64,000 nt of DNA, from the NCBI RefSeq assembly GCF_003259615.1, contig NZ_QLLR01000030.1, positions 1-64,000 on the forward strand, given 5' to 3'. Below are positions 8,500 to 53,544 of the stretch, in pieces. Made by a program: the position numbers and the translations under genes. Origin of the DNA: Pedobacter cryoconitis (lineage in GTDB: Bacteria; Bacteroidota; Bacteroidia; Sphingobacteriales; Sphingobacteriaceae). The notes beneath the pieces are model-generated. The model was not told where the DNA came from and made no database searches. It saw only the letters and a list, made by a program, of their open reading frames with translations. Numbering within the stretch: the first letter of the stretch is position 1; each line of letters opens with the position of its first letter.

Positions 8500-8512
8500 A
8501 AATCAGGATAAA

Positions 8513-8540
8513 TCTACAACAAAACACCAGATTTCTACAA
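8513..8540. promoter_or_regulatory. Phased TCTACAA repeats, candidate operator
   Basis: TCTACAA is present at 8513-8519 and 8534-8540, 21 bases apart, with similar A-rich flanks (CAAAACA and ATCAAACAAA). The pair sits between the divergent AraC and amidohydrolase genes and may be the AraC binding site. The repeat is short, so chance cannot be excluded. Confidence 0.3.
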
Positions 8541-8654
8541 ATCAAACAAAATAGGTTTACCGAGCTTTGTAAGAGCACAGGGATTCATAGCGCTCAGAAA
8601 AAACAAAGTATCAATGCTGAAGGTTTATCAATAAGCACATAAAAGTATATACCA

Positions 8655-10019
8655 ATGAAAAATATAATTACAACAGGGGTTTTATTGCTCAGCACAACCC
8701 TGCTGATGCCCTCCTTCAAAAGTGCAGATTTACCGGGTGATGGCGGCACTTTATTGAAAGACGTTACACTGATCGATGGAAACGGCGGCAAACCACAAGA
8801 ACATGTAGACATTCTGATCCAGGGCGACAGCATAGCCTCAATAGGCAGCAAATTGAAGACTGCAGGACTGCACGTTATTGACCTTAAAGGTAAAACCATT
8901 ATGCCAGCACTCATCAGTGCACATATGCACGCAGGTACGTTAAAAGGGACAAGCACTAAAGCAGCAAACTATACACGAGAGAATATTTTGGCGCAGCTGA
9001 AAAAGTATCAGGATTATGGGGTTAACAATGTTATGATCATGGGTACAGACAGGCCGCTGTTATTTGAAAGCGGTCTTCGTGACTCATCGCTTAACGGCTT
9101 ATTACCTGGTGCGCGGATACATTCTGCTGGTTATGGATTCGGTGTTCCTAAAGGTGCACCACCCGTTGAATTTGGAATGGACAATGTATTTCGCCCTGCC
9201 TCAGCAGCACAGGTACCTGCCGAAATGGACAGTCTGTTAAAGGTAAAACCAGATTTGGTAAAGATGTGGGTAGACGATTTCGGTGGCAAATTCGCGAAGA
9301 TGAAACCAGAAATCTATCAGCGGATAATCACTGAGGCACATCAGCGCAATTTGCGTGTAGCAGCACATGCTTATTATCTGAGTGATGCACGCAAGCTCGT
9401 TAATGATGGGCTGGATATTATTGGACATAGCATCAGAGACAGCGTAATCGATGATGGCTTAGTACAACAGATGAAAGCCAAAAATGTAGTTTACATCCCT
9501 ACCCTGTCGCTGGATGAGTTTGCTTACATCTATGCACGTAAACCAGAATGGCTGAACGATCCTTTTTTCAGGAATTCACTGGAACCAGGCGTATATGAAA
9601 TGATCACTTCAAAGAAATACCAGGACGACCTGAAAAACTCACCAGACTATGCTAAAAATGTAAAGGCTTTTGAAACAGCACTTAAAAACCTTAAAAAGCT
9701 CAATGATGCTGGTATTCTGATAGCTATGGGCACTGATAGTGGTGCCACTCCTGTAAGAGCACAGGGTTTTAGTGAACACCTGGAACTGGAACTGATGGTA
9801 CAGGCCGGTTTAACTCCATTACAGGCCATTACTGCGGGTACCAGAAATGCCGCCAAAGTGTTAAAGATAGATCAGAAATTCGGTACTATAGCAAAGGGAA
9901 AAATAGCCGACTTGCTGATCATAGATGCCAATCCCGCTCAGGACATTAAAAATACCCGCAAAATTTTCGCCGTTTACAAAGCCGGAAAAGAGGTGAGCAA
10001 AGGACCATTAAAAAAATAA
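8655..10019 (+). CDS. Exported metal-dependent amidohydrolase
   Basis: A 454-residue member of the amidohydrolase superfamily (imidazolonepropionase-like branch). The metal ligands are visible: HMH at 90-92, a Lys in VKMWVDD, His in VAAHAYY, His in IIGHSIRD and Asp in MGTDSGA. A signal peptide occupies roughly the first 20 residues (LLLSTTLLMPSFKSA), so it acts outside the cytoplasm. It should hydrolyse a cyclic amide, ester or peptide bond. It leads a tight operon: the VOC gene begins 3 bases after its stop. The ATG at 8655 immediately precedes the signal peptide. Confidence 0.87.
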   Translation: MKNIITTGVLLLSTTLLMPSFKSADLPGDGGTLLKDVTLIDGNGGKPQEHVDILIQGDSIASIGSKLKTAGLHVIDLKGKTIMPALISAHMHAGTLKGTSTKAANYTRENILAQLKKYQDYGVNNVMIMGTDRPLLFESGLRDSSLNGLLPGARIHSAGYGFGVPKGAPPVEFGMDNVFRPASAAQVPAEMDSLLKVKPDLVKMWVDDFGGKFAKMKPEIYQRIITEAHQRNLRVAAHAYYLSDARKLVNDGLDIIGHSIRDSVIDDGLVQQMKAKNVVYIPTLSLDEFAYIYARKPEWLNDPFFRNSLEPGVYEMITSKKYQDDLKNSPDYAKNVKAFETALKNLKKLNDAGILIAMGTDSGATPVRAQGFSEHLELELMVQAGLTPLQAITAGTRNAAKVLKIDQKFGTIAKGKIADLLIIDANPAQDIKNTRKIFAVYKAGKEVSKGPLKK

Positions 10020-47986: not shown

Positions 47987-48039
47987 TTGATTTTATGTTG
48001 TTGATTTATGTTGTTGATTTATGTTGTTGATTTATGTTG
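47987..48039. repeat. 13-bp tandem repeats in the aldo/keto reductase leader
   Basis: TTGATTTATGTTG occurs three times head to tail at 48001-48013, 48014-48026 and 48027-48039, preceded by a fourth copy with one extra T. On the minus strand the array lies in the untranslated leader, ending a few bases before the ATG at 47982. Slippage here would change leader length. Confidence 0.75.
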
Positions 48040-48099
48040 TAAAATTCATCATACGAGCCATAAGATACAAGTACGGCTAAATTCAGCTATAGCTAATAG

Positions 48100-48495: not shown

Positions 48496-49863
48496 TTACC
48501 TCTTAATCTTCATTTTTACTGCGAGAATGTGTTTACACAAACCTCTGTTATTTTGATGCGTAGTAAACCAGTTGCAGGTACATTGAAAAACATCATCTTT
48601 CTTTCCCGATACATCTTTCTTTCCCAAAATTGTATGTATTACACCAGAACTTCCTTTGACCTGCGCTTTGATGCTATTTTGGTCCTGCACTAAAATCTCA
48701 ATATCCCCCTGATTAACAAGCTTAATAGCATTTTGAATTCTTGGATTCAAGCTTTTAAGCCGTGATAATCTAAAAGGCAGCTTTCTGTAAAAATAAGAAT
48801 TGGTATATAAATCATACCCCAGTAAGCCAATGCTTGAAAGCGAGGCCTGCAAATTATCCATGGTTGTAAATTGAAGGTCATTTGCTATAGAAATAAGTGT
48901 TGGCTGAAAGATTTCATTTGTCTTGAACAAATGATTAATATCAGTTATCAATTCATCCGGTAGTTCACTTGTCAGATTTTCAAGATTCTTCCCTTCTCCA
49001 GAAAATCCTCTGTAAACACTATCAGATAATAAGAATAACATACGAATATCTTTAAAATCTAAAGTAATCGCGGTACTTTGCTGATCCTGACTCTGATAAA
49101 AAGAAATACTATCAATAAACATTAATAAATTTTCGATCAGACTAAGCCGGTGTATACCTCCAATTCTGACACTATCAGGTTTTTGCTGTGTAGAAAAACT
49201 ATAGGCATTTCCCGATTTCACGAGAAAATAATCTCCTTTAACAGGTGTCTTTGGCAAAGCCCGGAACAATTGTATAGCCTGGATTTTATCAAGTTTAAAA
49301 ATCAAATTCATTTGAGATAAATAAACTTGCACATTTCCCAATCCTTTGATCCACCGATCTGGCAAACTTACTTTCTTTTCTGTAGTTGCTGCGTTTTCAG
49401 TGATGACCTGCATGTCTTTGGACCCCACAGCAATCAACAGTTTTTCATTTCTTCCAACCGTATTGAAAGCTCTTATTGTTGCATCATTAAAGTCTACATT
49501 GGTACATCCTGGTTGAATAAATTCGCCATCAATCCCTTCTTTTAGTATATCTATCCTTGCATATATACTATTGCAGGAGGAAAATGCTTCAAAATGCAAC
49601 TGTTCATTCCCTACAGAAACAATAGGATCACGCAGGCTAATCCGCTGATCAGGAGTAATTGCAAAATGAGCACGAACAGTTTTCGCCAGTGTGCTTAAGC
49701 ATTTTGAAGCGATAAATGAATTGATAATATTTCCATAAAAAAAACAAGGTACATAATTATCTTTCTCTACCTCTGAACAGTGGGACAGGATAAAAGATTT
49801 ATCATTTCCTTTAATTGTTATGGTAGAGGCACTTTTATAACGATATTCAAAATCCGGGATCAT
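48496..49863 (-). CDS. SWIM zinc-finger protein
   Basis: A 455-residue protein whose last 30 residues form a SWIM zinc finger (FQCTCNWFTTHQNNRGLCKH: the CxC...CxH pattern). The rest is predicted beta-rich and helical without a recognisable enzyme motif. SWIM domains bind DNA or proteins. The start overlaps the DUF6493 stop by 4 bases (ATGA), and the two genes follow a SUFU-ankyrin gene. In other bacteria SWIM/DUF6493-type proteins occur with MoxR ATPases and VWA proteins, which are not present here. Confidence 0.83.
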   Translation of the reverse strand: MIPDFEYRYKSASTITIKGNDKSFILSHCSEVEKDNYVPCFFYGNIINSFIASKCLSTLAKTVRAHFAITPDQRISLRDPIVSVGNEQLHFEAFSSCNSIYARIDILKEGIDGEFIQPGCTNVDFNDATIRAFNTVGRNEKLLIAVGSKDMQVITENAATTEKKVSLPDRWIKGLGNVQVYLSQMNLIFKLDKIQAIQLFRALPKTPVKGDYFLVKSGNAYSFSTQQKPDSVRIGGIHRLSLIENLLMFIDSISFYQSQDQQSTAITLDFKDIRMLFLLSDSVYRGFSGEGKNLENLTSELPDELITDINHLFKTNEIFQPTLISIANDLQFTTMDNLQASLSSIGLLGYDLYTNSYFYRKLPFRLSRLKSLNPRIQNAIKLVNQGDIEILVQDQNSIKAQVKGSSGVIHTILGKKDVSGKKDDVFQCTCNWFTTHQNNRGLCKHILAVKMKIKR

Positions 49864-52415
49864 TTGCCTTTCAATTTTGCTAAAGTGAGGGTATCAATTT
49901 CTTTACTAAGAGATTTTGACCAATCTATATAGTAAGCAATTATCTTTTTGCTGTTAGCAGGTATTTTATTGACATCAAAATGCTGAATACAGCTTTCTAA
50001 AACAAGCAGCTGAAATTCTTTAATTTTTATGGAGCCCACAGGCTTATCAAAATATTCTATTAATCTATTGACAGGAGAAAAATTCAGTGCAACCAACCTC
50101 CCTATTATTGTGGCTAAAAAGGCTAAATTCTGCTTTTTATTTAAAATTGAGAACTCAATATACTCAGCAGCAAGATCTCTGGAAATTTTCTTTTCAAATA
50201 ATAGACAGACTGCAATGTAAAGCCATCCGCTATGATATATCCTTAATTGATGATTTAGCAAAAATTGAAGCGGATATAAACAATCTTCCAGTTCAGCAAC
50301 TTCATTTCCACTGGAGGTATCAGGAATATACCTGCATAACAAAGCTTCTAAGTATTGAGGTGTCAAGCTCATCTGATAAGGGATCTCTTCTCTATAACCT
50401 GTTTTAAAAGGAGCCAGATTATAAAAAAGCGTGGGATAAGATGTTGTTCTCTTTTGATAAAACCAGGCACTATTCCAATTATCTTCTAATGCTAAACGAT
50501 ACCAGGTAGCATATTCATTTTTATCGATCTCCACGCTAAAGTCAAGATTAAAAGGTTTGCAAACAGTCGGATATGCTTTAGCGCTGGTACTTTCGAATCG
50601 ATCGAAATTAGAAGACGGGTGTTTTATTCTCGCAATCTGCGTCCAAAGGGGTAATAAGTCATTTGTTGGTTTAAGTTCATCCGAGATACCCAGAGCGTAG
50701 TGAATAGCATCTGCATAATTTCCTTTTAATGTTTTGGCTAACCGGATACTTTCTTCGTTGACAAAACTATAAAGCAGTCTATTACATGCCACAACCAGAT
50801 CTTCAGGTTCAATCTTTATGTTTTGGGCCTCATATTGAAGCAAACGTTGGATAAGGATTTCCGGGTGAATGTAAAATGGAACATGTGTAGGGGTAGAAAG
50901 AAATGGTATTTTAAGCTTAGAAATTAAATTCCCTGAGAATGAAGTATTAGATGCCGAATTACCGGAAGCTAATTTTTGCTGCATCCATAGGGACTTATGT
51001 TTTAAAAACGGGACCGACTCTTCACTCCTTTCGTTAACAATAGCCTTTTTATTGATCCAGTAATCCATAAAATCAGCAAAACAAGTCATGACTTCATTTC
51101 CCCAGAACTTATTAAAAAGTTGTTTACCATAGGGTTTAAGTTGCTTTTCAAAGCCGGAAGGGATTATATCCTGCAGCTGATTCAATCCTTCAAAAAACAA
51201 GTCAATATCTAACGCAGATTTCGTTCTGATACAGGCACCAATTTGGAAAAGTAGCTCTTCCCAGGTAGATGGGATATTGACCGGAACAAGTAGTAGATCT
51301 TGTTCAGCTTTATGCCTGGCAATTTCTGATTCATGGGTGTCAATTTTAGATTCATAATTTTCCGTTTCTGTTCCAAGATTAGCACTTTCCGATCCGTGAT
51401 TGCCAGTTCCTGTTCCTTGATTACCAGTTTTTGTTTCTTGGTTGCCAGTTCCTATTCCTTGATTTCCACTTTCCGGGTTCATATTTACTACTGAATTATT
51501 CAGACCAAGAATAGATTTAGGTTTCCCTTTCAGATTATCATGATAAGGTTGAACGAGTTCATTTAAAAGTTCCTTAGCAATATATTTCACCAGCATCAGG
51601 GCCGTTTTTTCCTGAATTTTAAGATCAGGCTGTATTAATAATAAGCTTAGTTCTTCAGCAATGCTTTTATCTTTATAATCAGGTTTTGATAATATAGAAT
51701 CTACTATTTCCAGACTGATCAAAATTGATTTCTCACATTTCTCTTTTGAAAAAATAACAGGAATATTAGCTAAAAACCCGGCATGATCGAAGTCTTCATC
51801 TTTGTATAACAAATGAATTTGTTTGACAGCAAAATTTATCAAACCCGTGCTGCCAGTATTGAGTAAAGAAAACAGAAGATTTTGATGAAGTAAGTATTCT
51901 CCTTTACTGGTTTTTAACAGTTCCAATAGCCGGGTATGCCAATCAAGATGTGGTTTTTTCCAATTGTTTAACAATGATTCCATCAGCTGCTGAATAAGAA
52001 GCCGATCAAATACGTACCCCTTTTCCAAAAGAAGCTGAAATATTTCTGTCCAGAATTCAGTCACTCTTTTACAGACAGTCCCATTTGGTGTTTCCCATTT
52101 AGAAGTGTCCAGAACAGGGATTTCATATTTATAAAACTGAAGGAAAACCTTGGTCAATACTTCTGGGTTGTCCCATAAATAATCAGCATCTTCCCGGGTA
52201 TTTCTTTTGAACATAGGAATTGTAAAGAGTGCCCTGACAAACAACTCTTCATCAAACTTGATTAACCCATGTTTATACAACTCCCATAATACAGTAAAAT
52301 CTAATGTATGCAGATAAGCAATTGTCTGAGTACGTTCCTGCACAGTTAAAGCCTTATAATAATTTAAAACCTCCTGCCAATTCTTATCCTTTATAAACTG
52401 TTTTATTACATCCAT
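49860..52415 (-). CDS. DUF6493 family large helical protein
   Basis: An 851-residue protein of the DUF6493 type, mostly alpha-helical with an ARM/HEAT-like look and no evident catalytic residues or membrane helices. A low-complexity insert at about 312-367 consists of seven-residue units (GNQGTGT, GNQETKT, GNHGSES, ANLGTET and so on) that break the fold. The rest looks conserved across the protein (WYRLALEDNWNSAWFYQKR). It is the central gene of the operon with SUFU-ankyrin and SWIM proteins. Its role is unknown; a scaffold within a conflict-related complex is a reasonable guess. Confidence 0.7.
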   Translation of the reverse strand: MDVIKQFIKDKNWQEVLNYYKALTVQERTQTIAYLHTLDFTVLWELYKHGLIKFDEELFVRALFTIPMFKRNTREDADYLWDNPEVLTKVFLQFYKYEIPVLDTSKWETPNGTVCKRVTEFWTEIFQLLLEKGYVFDRLLIQQLMESLLNNWKKPHLDWHTRLLELLKTSKGEYLLHQNLLFSLLNTGSTGLINFAVKQIHLLYKDEDFDHAGFLANIPVIFSKEKCEKSILISLEIVDSILSKPDYKDKSIAEELSLLLIQPDLKIQEKTALMLVKYIAKELLNELVQPYHDNLKGKPKSILGLNNSVVNMNPESGNQGIGTGNQETKTGNQGTGTGNHGSESANLGTETENYESKIDTHESEIARHKAEQDLLLVPVNIPSTWEELLFQIGACIRTKSALDIDLFFEGLNQLQDIIPSGFEKQLKPYGKQLFNKFWGNEVMTCFADFMDYWINKKAIVNERSEESVPFLKHKSLWMQQKLASGNSASNTSFSGNLISKLKIPFLSTPTHVPFYIHPEILIQRLLQYEAQNIKIEPEDLVVACNRLLYSFVNEESIRLAKTLKGNYADAIHYALGISDELKPTNDLLPLWTQIARIKHPSSNFDRFESTSAKAYPTVCKPFNLDFSVEIDKNEYATWYRLALEDNWNSAWFYQKRTTSYPTLFYNLAPFKTGYREEIPYQMSLTPQYLEALLCRYIPDTSSGNEVAELEDCLYPLQFLLNHQLRIYHSGWLYIAVCLLFEKKISRDLAAEYIEFSILNKKQNLAFLATIIGRLVALNFSPVNRLIEYFDKPVGSIKIKEFQLLVLESCIQHFDVNKIPANSKKIIAYYIDWSKSLSKEIDTLTLAKLKGK
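51337..51480. repeat. 21-bp coding repeats inside the DUF6493 gene
   Basis: About six 21-base units begin TT(G/A)CCAGTT(C/T)CTG and similar, best preserved at 51400-51462. They encode consecutive seven-residue Gly/Asn/Glu/Thr-rich units. The array keeps the frame because 21 is a multiple of three, so copy changes would lengthen or shorten a linker. Confidence 0.75.
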
Positions 52416-52432
52416 ATTTTTCTTTCTTAATC

Positions 52433-52504
52433 ATTGGGGTTATTCCAGATTATCACAGATAATATCCGATAATCAGAAATAGCATAATAATAATTATCCC
52501 CAAT
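52433..52504 (-). ncRNA. Nested inverted repeats between SUFU-ankyrin and DUF6493 genes
   Basis: ATTGGGGTTATT (52433-52444) can pair with AATTATCCCCAAT (52492-52504) with a bulge, enclosing GATTATC (52448-52454) and GATAATC (52468-52474), which also pair. The structure occupies most of the 103-base gap before the DUF6493 start. It could be a partial terminator, an attenuator or an RNA-processing site that sets gene dosage. Confidence 0.4.
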
Positions 52505-52518
52505 TTCTTACCTGATTA

Positions 52519-53544
52519 TTATTCAACTGCACCTAAAGCGATTAAGTCATTAAACCCTTCTATATTTTTAAAAGATTTTGCACGCTCCAGAGCCGACATT
52601 TCAACAGATTTTGAATTAATATCTGCTCCTTTATTGATCAGATATTCAAAGATATTCCGCTTTCCCCAGCCTCCAAGGAAAGCAAGTGCATTTACAGGTA
52701 CTTCTGCCCCATTTTCAACCAGGTATTTAATCAATAATACATTCTCAGTATCAAAAGCACGCGTTAAAATAGTTTGGGTGGTATAAAAGCCAATCTGCCA
52801 GTGCTCTTCTATATATCCTCTGTTAACTTCTGCACCCGCCTCTACAGCCTTTTGAATTTTCGGAAGCTCCATTGTCGTCACTCCATCATTCAACAGATTT
52901 TGAAGAGCTATAGCCCTATTCAATGGGAAAGCAATGTTATCCCAGGTCAGTTGATCTTTTGATATTAATATTTCATTCAGTTTATCTTTAATTTCGCCCT
53001 CAGTTTTATACACTGGTATTAAAGTATAAATTGTTATCATTTCTTCTGCATCATTCAAACCTTCCTCCTGATGAGGGTTTTCATTCCAATTATAGTTGAC
53101 ACAAACTAAACCCTCAAGCTCTTGCTCCCATGAAAGCTTATTCCATGGTGCTTTATTACGATCGAGAAAAAGACCTTCGGTAATTTTAAATGCCGACTTT
53201 TTACGTTCAAGTTTTATAGTCAGCTCTTTTAATAAGTCAACCATAAAGGTTTCTTCTATAAATTGAGAAGTAACAAAGCGCCTTATCTCCCACTCTTTTG
53301 GTAAACAAAGACACAATTCTATATTTTGAAGTTCAAATAGTCCGGTAGTAAACAGCAATTTCAGATCGGTATCTTTTACTTCACATTGGTCGATAAAAAT
53401 TTCATACTGAGCGCTTAAAGCTATAGGTGGAGCCTGTATAAGTTTTCCAGTTGTACTGGCAAAAAAACTGCTGATCGGATTGATTTCCTTAGCCTCCAGA
53501 TTATATACATATTCTTTCCGGCTTATCTTCAGGGCTTTATTCAT
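52519..53544 (-). CDS. SUFU-like domain fused to ankyrin repeats
   Basis: A 341-residue protein in two parts. Residues 1 to about 200 resemble the suppressor-of-fused (SUFU) domain: TTGLFELQNIELCLCLPKEW, LLKELTIKLERKK, the loop with SWEQELEGLVCV and EEMITIYTLIPVYKTEGE. The C-terminal third holds two or three ankyrin repeats (AVEAGAEVNRGY, VLLIKYLVENGAEV, IFEYLINKGADINSKS). Bacterial SUFU proteins often serve as immunity proteins for polymorphic toxins and ankyrins as binding scaffolds. It is first in the operon with DUF6493 and SWIM. The SUFU call rests on pattern memory. Confidence 0.7.
   Translation of the reverse strand: MNKALKISRKEYVYNLEAKEINPISSFFASTTGKLIQAPPIALSAQYEIFIDQCEVKDTDLKLLFTTGLFELQNIELCLCLPKEWEIRRFVTSQFIEETFMVDLLKELTIKLERKKSAFKITEGLFLDRNKAPWNKLSWEQELEGLVCVNYNWNENPHQEEGLNDAEEMITIYTLIPVYKTEGEIKDKLNEILISKDQLTWDNIAFPLNRAIALQNLLNDGVTTMELPKIQKAVEAGAEVNRGYIEEHWQIGFYTTQTILTRAFDTENVLLIKYLVENGAEVPVNALAFLGGWGKRNIFEYLINKGADINSKSVEMSALERAKSFKNIEGFNDLIALGAVE

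What the first reader, a model, noticed from the sequence alone, without database searches (positions are those of the whole stretch)
48496..53544. SUFU-ankyrin / DUF6493 / SWIM three-gene operon without its usual partners
Seen: three same-strand genes, the last two overlapping by 4 bases. The first encodes a SUFU-like domain plus ankyrin repeats, the second a giant helical DUF6493 protein and the third a C-terminal SWIM finger. Known families: SUFU and ankyrin proteins act as immunity or binding modules in polymorphic-toxin loci, and SWIM/DUF6493-type proteins occur near MoxR and VWA genes in proposed NTP-dependent conflict systems. Inference: this is a compact, ATPase-free variant of such a system. 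I know of no described function for this trio.
Basis: partly seen in the sequence, partly recalled or inferred. Interest (0 to 1): 0.6.

Follow-up and report, generated by a model that had tools for sequence, protein, structure and literature searches.

The report
Clamp-fold SWIM protein with helical partner
A soil bacterium (Pedobacter) carries a mobile-looking two-gene module, kin to the effector pair of a type of bacterial retron immune system, whose zinc-finger protein is predicted to have the ring-forming fold of DNA sliding clamps, which was not expected; the third, SUFU/ankyrin gene is a local add-on found in only three relatives.

Summary
The three genes are real and sit at the stated coordinates. 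The conserved unit is the last two: DUF6493 plus SWIM, adjacent in about 96 Bacteroidota loci and also in Proteobacteria and Actinomycetota, co-diverging (Mantel r 0.965). The SUFU-ankyrin gene occurs in 3 of about 145 Pedobacter genomes, at one shared site. MoxR and VWA are not the usual partners: no E. coli YehL- or YehP-like gene lies within 10 kb of any pair examined.

The nearest described relative is the type XIII retron. Complete RT_XIII–WGR–SWIM operons exist in the same genus, and the window SWIM protein is homologous to retron SWIM_XIII over about 350 columns (99.5%, E 2e-22). Most DUF6493 partners keep the WGR domain; the window clade lost it. The window genome has no reverse transcriptase.

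Unexpectedly, the AlphaFold model of the SWIM protein (pLDDT 82) has a PCNA/DnaN sliding-clamp fold over residues 40–284 (Z 16.6, 214 residues, 2.9 Å), then a probable winged helix and the zinc finger. Sequence searches did not detect this. DUF6493 is a helical solenoid.

Best reading: an RT-free, clamp-based DNA-sensing conflict module with a solenoid partner. The fold and pairing are well supported; the function and any ring are inferred.

The parts
52519..53544 (-). SUFU-like (N-terminal) plus ankyrin (C-terminal) protein, 341 aa; lineage-specific first gene
   Evidence: dN/dS about 0.19
52981..53325 (-). SUFU-like region (residues 74-188), sub-threshold in Pfam; related at about 25% identity to the C-terminal domain of RHS-linked immunity proteins
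52609..52779 (-). ankyrin repeats (residues 256-312)
   Evidence: Ank_2, 23.6 bits, below cut-off
49860..52415 (-). DUF6493-DUF7824-DUF7825 alpha-solenoid protein, 851 aa, without the WGR domain of most relatives
52295..52304 (-). approximate site of an in-frame deletion of about 100 codons relative to the two closest relatives (L156, L157)
   Evidence: BLASTN breakpoints; alignments
51393..51468 (-). 21-bp (7-aa) tandem repeat, 3.6 copies, inside the low-confidence linker (about residues 308-373) of the DUF6493 protein
   Evidence: model
48496..49863 (-). SWIM protein, 455 aa: clamp fold, probable winged helix, SWIM zinc finger; homologue of retron SWIM_XIII over most of its length
49012..49746 (-). 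predicted PCNA/DnaN sliding-clamp fold (residues 40-284)
   Evidence: Foldseek E 3.8e-10; VIA-align Z 16.6, 214 aligned residues, rmsd 2.9 A; viral PCNAs/clamps
48787..48957 (-). probable winged helix (residues 303-359), from secondary-structure order only
   Evidence: inference
48502..48591 (-). SWIM zinc finger (residues 425-454), C428-x-C430...C443-x-H445 invariant
49860..49863 (-). 4-base overlap of the DUF6493 and SWIM genes; kept in most paired members of the window's clade (two others overlap by 1 base)

Best explanation
The core is a two-gene, reverse-transcriptase-free relative of the effector pair of type XIII retrons. The SWIM protein is a DNA-clamp-fold protein (residues 40-284) with a probable winged helix and a C-terminal zinc finger, so it most likely binds or encircles DNA. 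The DUF6493 protein is a long helical solenoid that most likely scaffolds, loads or gates that clamp; in most relatives it also has an N-terminal WGR domain, which in other proteins contacts DNA ends or nicks (from general knowledge). I infer that the pair recognises an abnormal DNA state, such as phage replication or damaged DNA, and triggers a conflict or abortive response. In the window lineage the WGR domain is gone and a SUFU-ankyrin gene, kin to polymorphic-toxin immunity proteins, was recruited upstream, probably as a protein-binding regulator or brake. Shown by computation: the pairing, the co-divergence, the homology of the SWIM protein to retron SWIM_XIII, the clamp fold as a predicted model, the solenoid as a predicted model, and the patchy distribution with decay. 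Inferred: DNA binding, any ring, the physical contact of the two proteins, the defence role and the role of SUFU-Ank.
For: Adjacent same-strand pair in 12 of 12 relatives and about 96 Bacteroidota loci; also in Asticcacaulis, Diaphorobacter and Streptomyces. Distance matrices of the two proteins correlate at r 0.965, maximum 0.22 in 999 shuffles. Retron XIII operon in Pedobacter: RT_XIII 614 bits, WGR_XIII 1061 bits, SWIM_XIII 764 bits. Window SWIM against SWIM_XIII 192 bits, hhalign 99.5%, E 2.4e-22, 351 columns. WGR shared by the partners (30 of 48). In one Flavobacterium a complete retron XIII is followed after 320 bp by a WGR-DUF6493/SWIM pair; in another the two lie about 14 kb apart. Clamp fold. 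Solenoid. Patchy and decaying: full-length pair-type SWIM in 18 of 145 Pedobacter genomes, remnants in G610 and G104, syntenic deletion in G544. Three sub-clades coexist in one genome, G539. Several DUF6493 copies beside one SWIM gene in L112, L184 and G408.
Against: No experiment links this pair to phage or toxin resistance. The helical part of DUF6493 is not detectably homologous to that of retron WGR_XIII, so only the WGR and the SWIM protein are shared. Charge on the four helices that would line the clamp hole is only weakly positive, and in the retron proteins only one of the four is positive. No recurrent defence genes next to the pair: single hits among 114 neighbours. No homologue in phage or viral collections. 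A retron XIII neighbour is rare (one locus in about 96 within 10 kb). Retron SWIM_XIII itself was not folded here.
Confidence: 0.5

Rival explanations
1. The pair is a non-defence DNA metabolism accessory: a specialised clamp and adaptor for repair, recombination or chromosome maintenance, kept or lost by habitat.
For: Clamp fold and WGR domain are both typical of DNA replication or repair proteins; one Spirosomataceae SWIM gene lies 10 bp upstream of a RecQ helicase gene; neighbours are mostly not defence genes.
Against: Patchy presence, remnants and multiple coexisting sub-clades, fast divergence of the partner, and homology to a retron component fit conflict better.
Confidence: 0.25
2. The trio is a toxin-antitoxin or toxin-immunity unit: the DUF6493-SWIM pair is harmful when free and SUFU-Ank is its antidote.
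For: SUFU-Ank relatives follow RHS toxin ends; in G544 the pair is deleted and SUFU-Ank is reduced to remnants at the same site; first gene in the unit, 103 bp ahead.
Against: Most pairs, including others of the same sub-clade (L158, L159, L076, L079-L083), have no SUFU-Ank gene, so no antidote of this kind is generally needed.
Confidence: 0.15
3. One reading: a reduced, ATPase-free variant of MoxR/VWA NTP-dependent conflict systems.
For: SWIM and DUF4132 proteins also occur in the E. coli yeh locus with MoxR and VWA genes; DUF5724/DUF4132 gene upstream of the pair in two related Flavobacterium loci; one neighbour with bpX4.
Against: No MoxR/VWA gene by phmmer within about 10 kb in any locus; YehQ is homologous only at the zinc finger; the two-gene state is the common one, so nothing was lost.
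Confidence: 0.05
4. The clamp-like domain is a scaffold turned into an enzyme or ligand sensor: the charged invariant residues D79, E92, D124, E162 and K164 form an active or binding site rather than a DNA ring.
For: These residues are invariant in 29 proteins from Bacteroidota, Proteobacteria, Actinomycetota and retrons, more than a structural clamp needs.
Against: Their arrangement in space was not examined (no coordinates available); could equally be the subunit interface.
Confidence: 0.15

Closest known systems
Type XIII retron (RT_XIII + WGR_XIII/HEAT-ARM + SWIM_XIII)
   Same: SWIM protein homologous over about 350 columns; partner is a large helical protein that in most relatives begins with WGR; same order, helical gene then SWIM gene, a few bases apart or overlapping.
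   Different: No reverse transcriptase beside the pair or anywhere in the window genome; helical region not detectably homologous; window partner lacks WGR; retron SWIM has an extra insert of about 65 aa.
DNA sliding clamps (PCNA, DnaN)
   Same: Predicted fold of residues 40-284 matches essentially a whole PCNA chain (Z 16.6, 214 of 244 residues).
   Different: No sequence similarity detected; extra winged helix and zinc finger; ring and DNA loading not shown.
E. coli yehI-yehL-yehM-yehP-yehQ locus and other MoxR/VWA systems
   Same: Contains SWIM and DUF4132 components.
   Different: YehQ zinc finger is N-terminal and the rest is unrelated; MoxR and VWA present there, absent here.
SUFU/ankyrin immunity proteins of RHS polymorphic toxins
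   Same: Window SUFU-like region about 25% identical to the C-terminal region of proteins encoded directly after RHS ends in Pedobacter.
   Different: Domain order reversed (SUFU-Ank here, Ank-SUFU there); no toxin gene nearby.

Membership tests
Type XIII retron | SWIM_XIII protein | tested here: met
   PADLOC PDLC02972, 192 bits; hhalign 99.5%, E 2.4e-22
Type XIII retron | WGR/HEAT-ARM partner (WGR_XIII) | tested here: not met
   No WGR_XIII hit for the window DUF6493 protein; helical parts not homologous; WGR kept in sister clades
Type XIII retron | reverse transcriptase in the operon | tested here: not met
   No RT gene at the locus and no RVT_1 match in the whole genome
Type XIII retron | retron ncRNA | tested here: inconclusive
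   No Rfam match in 47-56 kb, but type XIII ncRNA may not be in Rfam
DNA sliding clamp | two-domain clamp fold | tested here: met
   Predicted model only:
DNA sliding clamp | sequence match to clamp families | tested here: not met
   Pfam scan and PDB sequence profile searches show no clamp
DNA sliding clamp | positively charged inner helices | tested here: inconclusive
   Mean net charge +2.1, -0.4, +0.5, +1.0 on the four helices
DNA sliding clamp | ring oligomer around DNA | not testable with these tools
   No multimer prediction or coordinates
MoxR/VWA NTP-dependent conflict system | MoxR AAA+ ATPase and VWA gene in the locus | tested here: not met
   None in the window neighbourhood; phmmer with YehL and YehP negative around all pair loci
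SUFU immunity protein of polymorphic toxins | SUFU domain | tested here: inconclusive
   16.7 bits against a cut-off of 25; relative at E 5.7e-4; profile against PDB sequences empty
SUFU immunity protein of polymorphic toxins | adjacent toxin gene | tested here: not met
   Neighbours are a serine hydrolase (beta-lactamase family) and the DUF6493 gene

The most novel reading that the evidence does not exclude
The SWIM proteins of these pairs, and by homology those of type XIII retrons, are cryptic DNA sliding clamps used as immune sensors or effector platforms, with an ATP-independent solenoid partner in place of a clamp loader; the clamp-solenoid pair exists with a retron, alone with WGR, or alone with a recruited SUFU-ankyrin regulator. 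Some loci have several solenoids beside one clamp gene, a shared-clamp, changeable-partner design.
Probability: 0.3. Interest if true: 0.87.

Novelty: new variant of a known kind. Interest (0 to 1): 0.7.

Why it matters
If the clamp fold holds, it gives a concrete structural hypothesis for a retron type for which I found no mechanism described, and for DUF6493 and this SWIM family, which carry no function in Pfam or NCBIfam here. It turns 'unknown DUF pair' into testable questions: does the SWIM protein form a ring on DNA, does DUF6493 load it, and does the pair stop phages with and without a retron reverse transcriptase? Natural versions with RT, with WGR, without WGR and with SUFU-Ank form a ready comparison series.

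Tried and rejected
MoxR/VWA partners searched with E. coli YehL, YehM and YehP: none near the pair. YehQ as full-length homologue: rejected. Homology of the DUF6493 solenoid to the retron WGR_XIII solenoid: not found (with WGR included only the WGR aligns). Natural fusion of SWIM and DUF6493 in G408, suggested by a long open frame: rejected on reading the DNA, they are two adjacent genes after a further DUF6493 copy. Pseudogene status of the window DUF6493 because of its deletion: rejected, open frame and dN/dS equal to the intact pair of relatives. Viral or phage carriage: no hits. Rfam RNA at the locus: none. Bacteroidetes-type promoter pattern: no match near the trio and no excess over chance. 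First scan of genome contigs with the DUF6493 protein found nothing, probably because the protein diverges fast. PDB sequence search with the SUFU-like profile: no match. DUF6493 fold matches (armadillo, karyopherin, cohesin loader; Z about 10-11) are within what any helical repeat gives and are not used as kinship. Literature: no open-access paper joins 'sliding clamp' and 'SWIM zinc finger' or mentions DUF6493; the paper I recalled as the retron classification is not held, so novelty of the clamp fold rests on a limited search.

Full report
WHAT IS THERE. Three genes lie on the minus strand at the coordinates given: 52519-53544, 49860-52415 and 48496-49863, the last two overlapping by 4 bases. 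Pfam finds DUF6493, DUF7824 and DUF7825 strongly in the second. SUFU and ankyrin in the first and SWIM in the third are all below the curated cut-offs. NCBIfam names none. PADLOC gives the first lead: the third protein matches SWIM_XIII, a type XIII retron component, at 192 bits. All three genes evolve under purifying selection against two relatives: dN/dS about 0.19, 0.15 and 0.10, with flanking genes at 0.08-0.16.

THE CONSERVED UNIT IS A PAIR. DUF6493 relatives in the order sit next to a SWIM gene in 12 of 12 cases. Extending with named genomes gave 96 loci holding both full-length genes, nearly all adjacent and on the same strand. The same pair is annotated in Asticcacaulis, Diaphorobacter (one SWIM gene, two DUF6493 genes) and Streptomyces. 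Pairwise distances of the two proteins correlate at 0.965 over 92 loci. Genes beside the pair vary: among 114 non-redundant neighbours no Pfam family occurs more than twice. phmmer with E. coli YehL (MoxR) and YehP (VWA) found nothing within about 10 kb of any pair. Two related Flavobacterium loci do have a DUF5724/DUF4132 protein just upstream, and one neighbour hit bpX4 (locus not identified).

THE THIRD GENE IS LOCAL. SUFU-Ank precedes the pair only in the window and in G542 and G609, which share the flank on the SUFU-Ank side. Other members of the window's clade have the pair without it. In G544 the whole neighbourhood is syntenic at about 85% identity, but the pair is gone and SUFU-Ank survives only as end fragments; this single case fits linked loss. 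More distant relatives of the SUFU-like part lie directly after RHS toxin ends, with ankyrin repeats first and the SUFU-like part second. So kinship to immunity proteins is likely, but the SUFU label itself stays weak.

LINK TO RETRONS. In Pedobacter the distant SWIM homologues belong to complete type XIII retron operons: RT_XIII 614 bits, WGR_XIII 1061 bits, SWIM_XIII 764 bits. Profile comparison of the pair SWIM family with retron SWIM_XIII gives 99.5% probability, E 2.4e-22, over 351 columns. Of 48 DUF6493 proteins, 30 start with a WGR domain, which aligns with the WGR of the retron partner. The helical parts do not align. The window clade (B) and another clade (C) lack WGR. The window genome has no RVT_1 gene. 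In Flavobacterium sp. ov086 a full retron XIII is followed 320 bp later by a WGR-DUF6493/SWIM pair, and in G428 the two lie about 14 kb apart. This is suggestive but rare.

THE CLAMP FOLD. The AlphaFold model of the window SWIM protein (26 sequences, pLDDT 82, pTM 0.80) matches sliding clamps throughout the top 50 of Foldseek on the PDB (PCNA and DnaN, E 3.8e-10). It also matches viral PCNAs and phage clamps. VIA-align gives Z 16.6, 214 aligned residues of a 244-residue PCNA, rmsd 2.9 A, model residues 40-282. This stands far above the level the tool warns about, and the match spans the whole clamp chain. Sequence profiles do not see it. The region after the clamp (303-359) has the helix-helix-helix-strand-strand order of a winged helix; this was not tested separately. 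Charge on the would-be inner helices is weakly positive, so that test is inconclusive. Charged residues D79, E92, D124, E162 and K164 are invariant in 29 diverse proteins and are unexplained.

THE PARTNER. The DUF6493 model (48 sequences, pLDDT 82) is a helical solenoid with a disordered linker at about 308-373. Its structural matches are generic armadillo/HEAT proteins. The partner diverges much faster than the SWIM protein: 20% against 47% identity between clades A and B. Some loci carry a tandem series of DUF6493 genes beside one SWIM gene: Flavobacterium collinsii three plus a fragment before it, G408 two before it, Diaphorobacter two after it. The window copy lost about 100 codons near its N terminus relative to its closest relatives and gained a 7-aa repeat in the linker.

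DYNAMICS. In 145 Pedobacter genomes, 18 have a full-length pair-type SWIM gene, two hold remnants and seven hold weak hits in 557-572-aa frames of the retron type (with for the retron assignment of examples). One genome carries one of each clade (G539). This patchiness and decay fit an accessory conflict function better than housekeeping, but do not prove it.

INTERPRETATION. Established computationally: a conserved, co-diverging pair; SWIM homology to a retron component; a predicted clamp fold; a predicted solenoid; a lineage-specific SUFU-Ank gene. Inferred: DNA binding, ring formation, complex formation, a defence role and SUFU-Ank as a regulator. I put 0.5 on the clamp-based conflict-module reading as a whole.

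LIMITS. The clamp result is a prediction from one model; retron SWIM_XIII was not folded itself; no multimer modelling was possible; the collection scan returned only the best 80 of 283 relatives; the MoxR/VWA search used two E. coli queries; the literature search covered open-access text only.

Noticed in passing
L120 103-11323 (Flavobacterium sp. ov086): Complete type XIII retron (RT, WGR_XIII, SWIM_XIII) followed 320 bp later, same strand, by its RT-less relative pair WGR-DUF6493/SWIM.
   Followed up: partly
L112 28-11323 (Flavobacterium collinsii): Tandem series of three full WGR-DUF6493 genes (and a fourth partial one at the left end) before a single SWIM gene; similar two-copy cases in L222 (G408) and L184 (Diaphorobacter).
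   Followed up: partly
L172 76-1956 and L174 16-1965: RHS toxin ends with a histidine-rich C-terminal domain followed within 10-20 bp by Ank-SUFU-like immunity genes, domain order reversed relative to the window protein.
   Followed up: partly
window 52295-52304 and 51393-51468: The DUF6493 gene has an in-frame deletion of about 100 codons against its closest relatives and a 21-bp tandem repeat in the linker, both likely recent.
   Followed up: yes
L209 (G544) 8512-9634: Syntenic site with the pair deleted and only end fragments of SUFU-Ank left.
   Followed up: yes
L160, L161, L162, immediately upstream of the SWIM gene: A 290-293 aa protein (the L161 copy scanned) with no confident Pfam or PADLOC match precedes the clade C pair in three Pedobacter genomes, a parallel to SUFU-Ank in the window clade.
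   Followed up: partly
L095 1131-6790 and L108 968-6592: DUF5724-DUF4132-DUF7737 protein (YehI-type, Pfam-scanned in L108 only) and a 144-aa gene just upstream of the pair in two related Flavobacterium species.
   Followed up: partly
window 48496-49863 (SWIM protein residues D79, E92, D124, E162, K164): Charged residues invariant in 29 diverse homologues including retron proteins; role unknown (interface, ligand or active site).
   Followed up: no
window 48000-48040: 13-bp tandem repeat, 3.2 perfect copies, between the aldo-keto reductase and HxlR genes.
   Followed up: no
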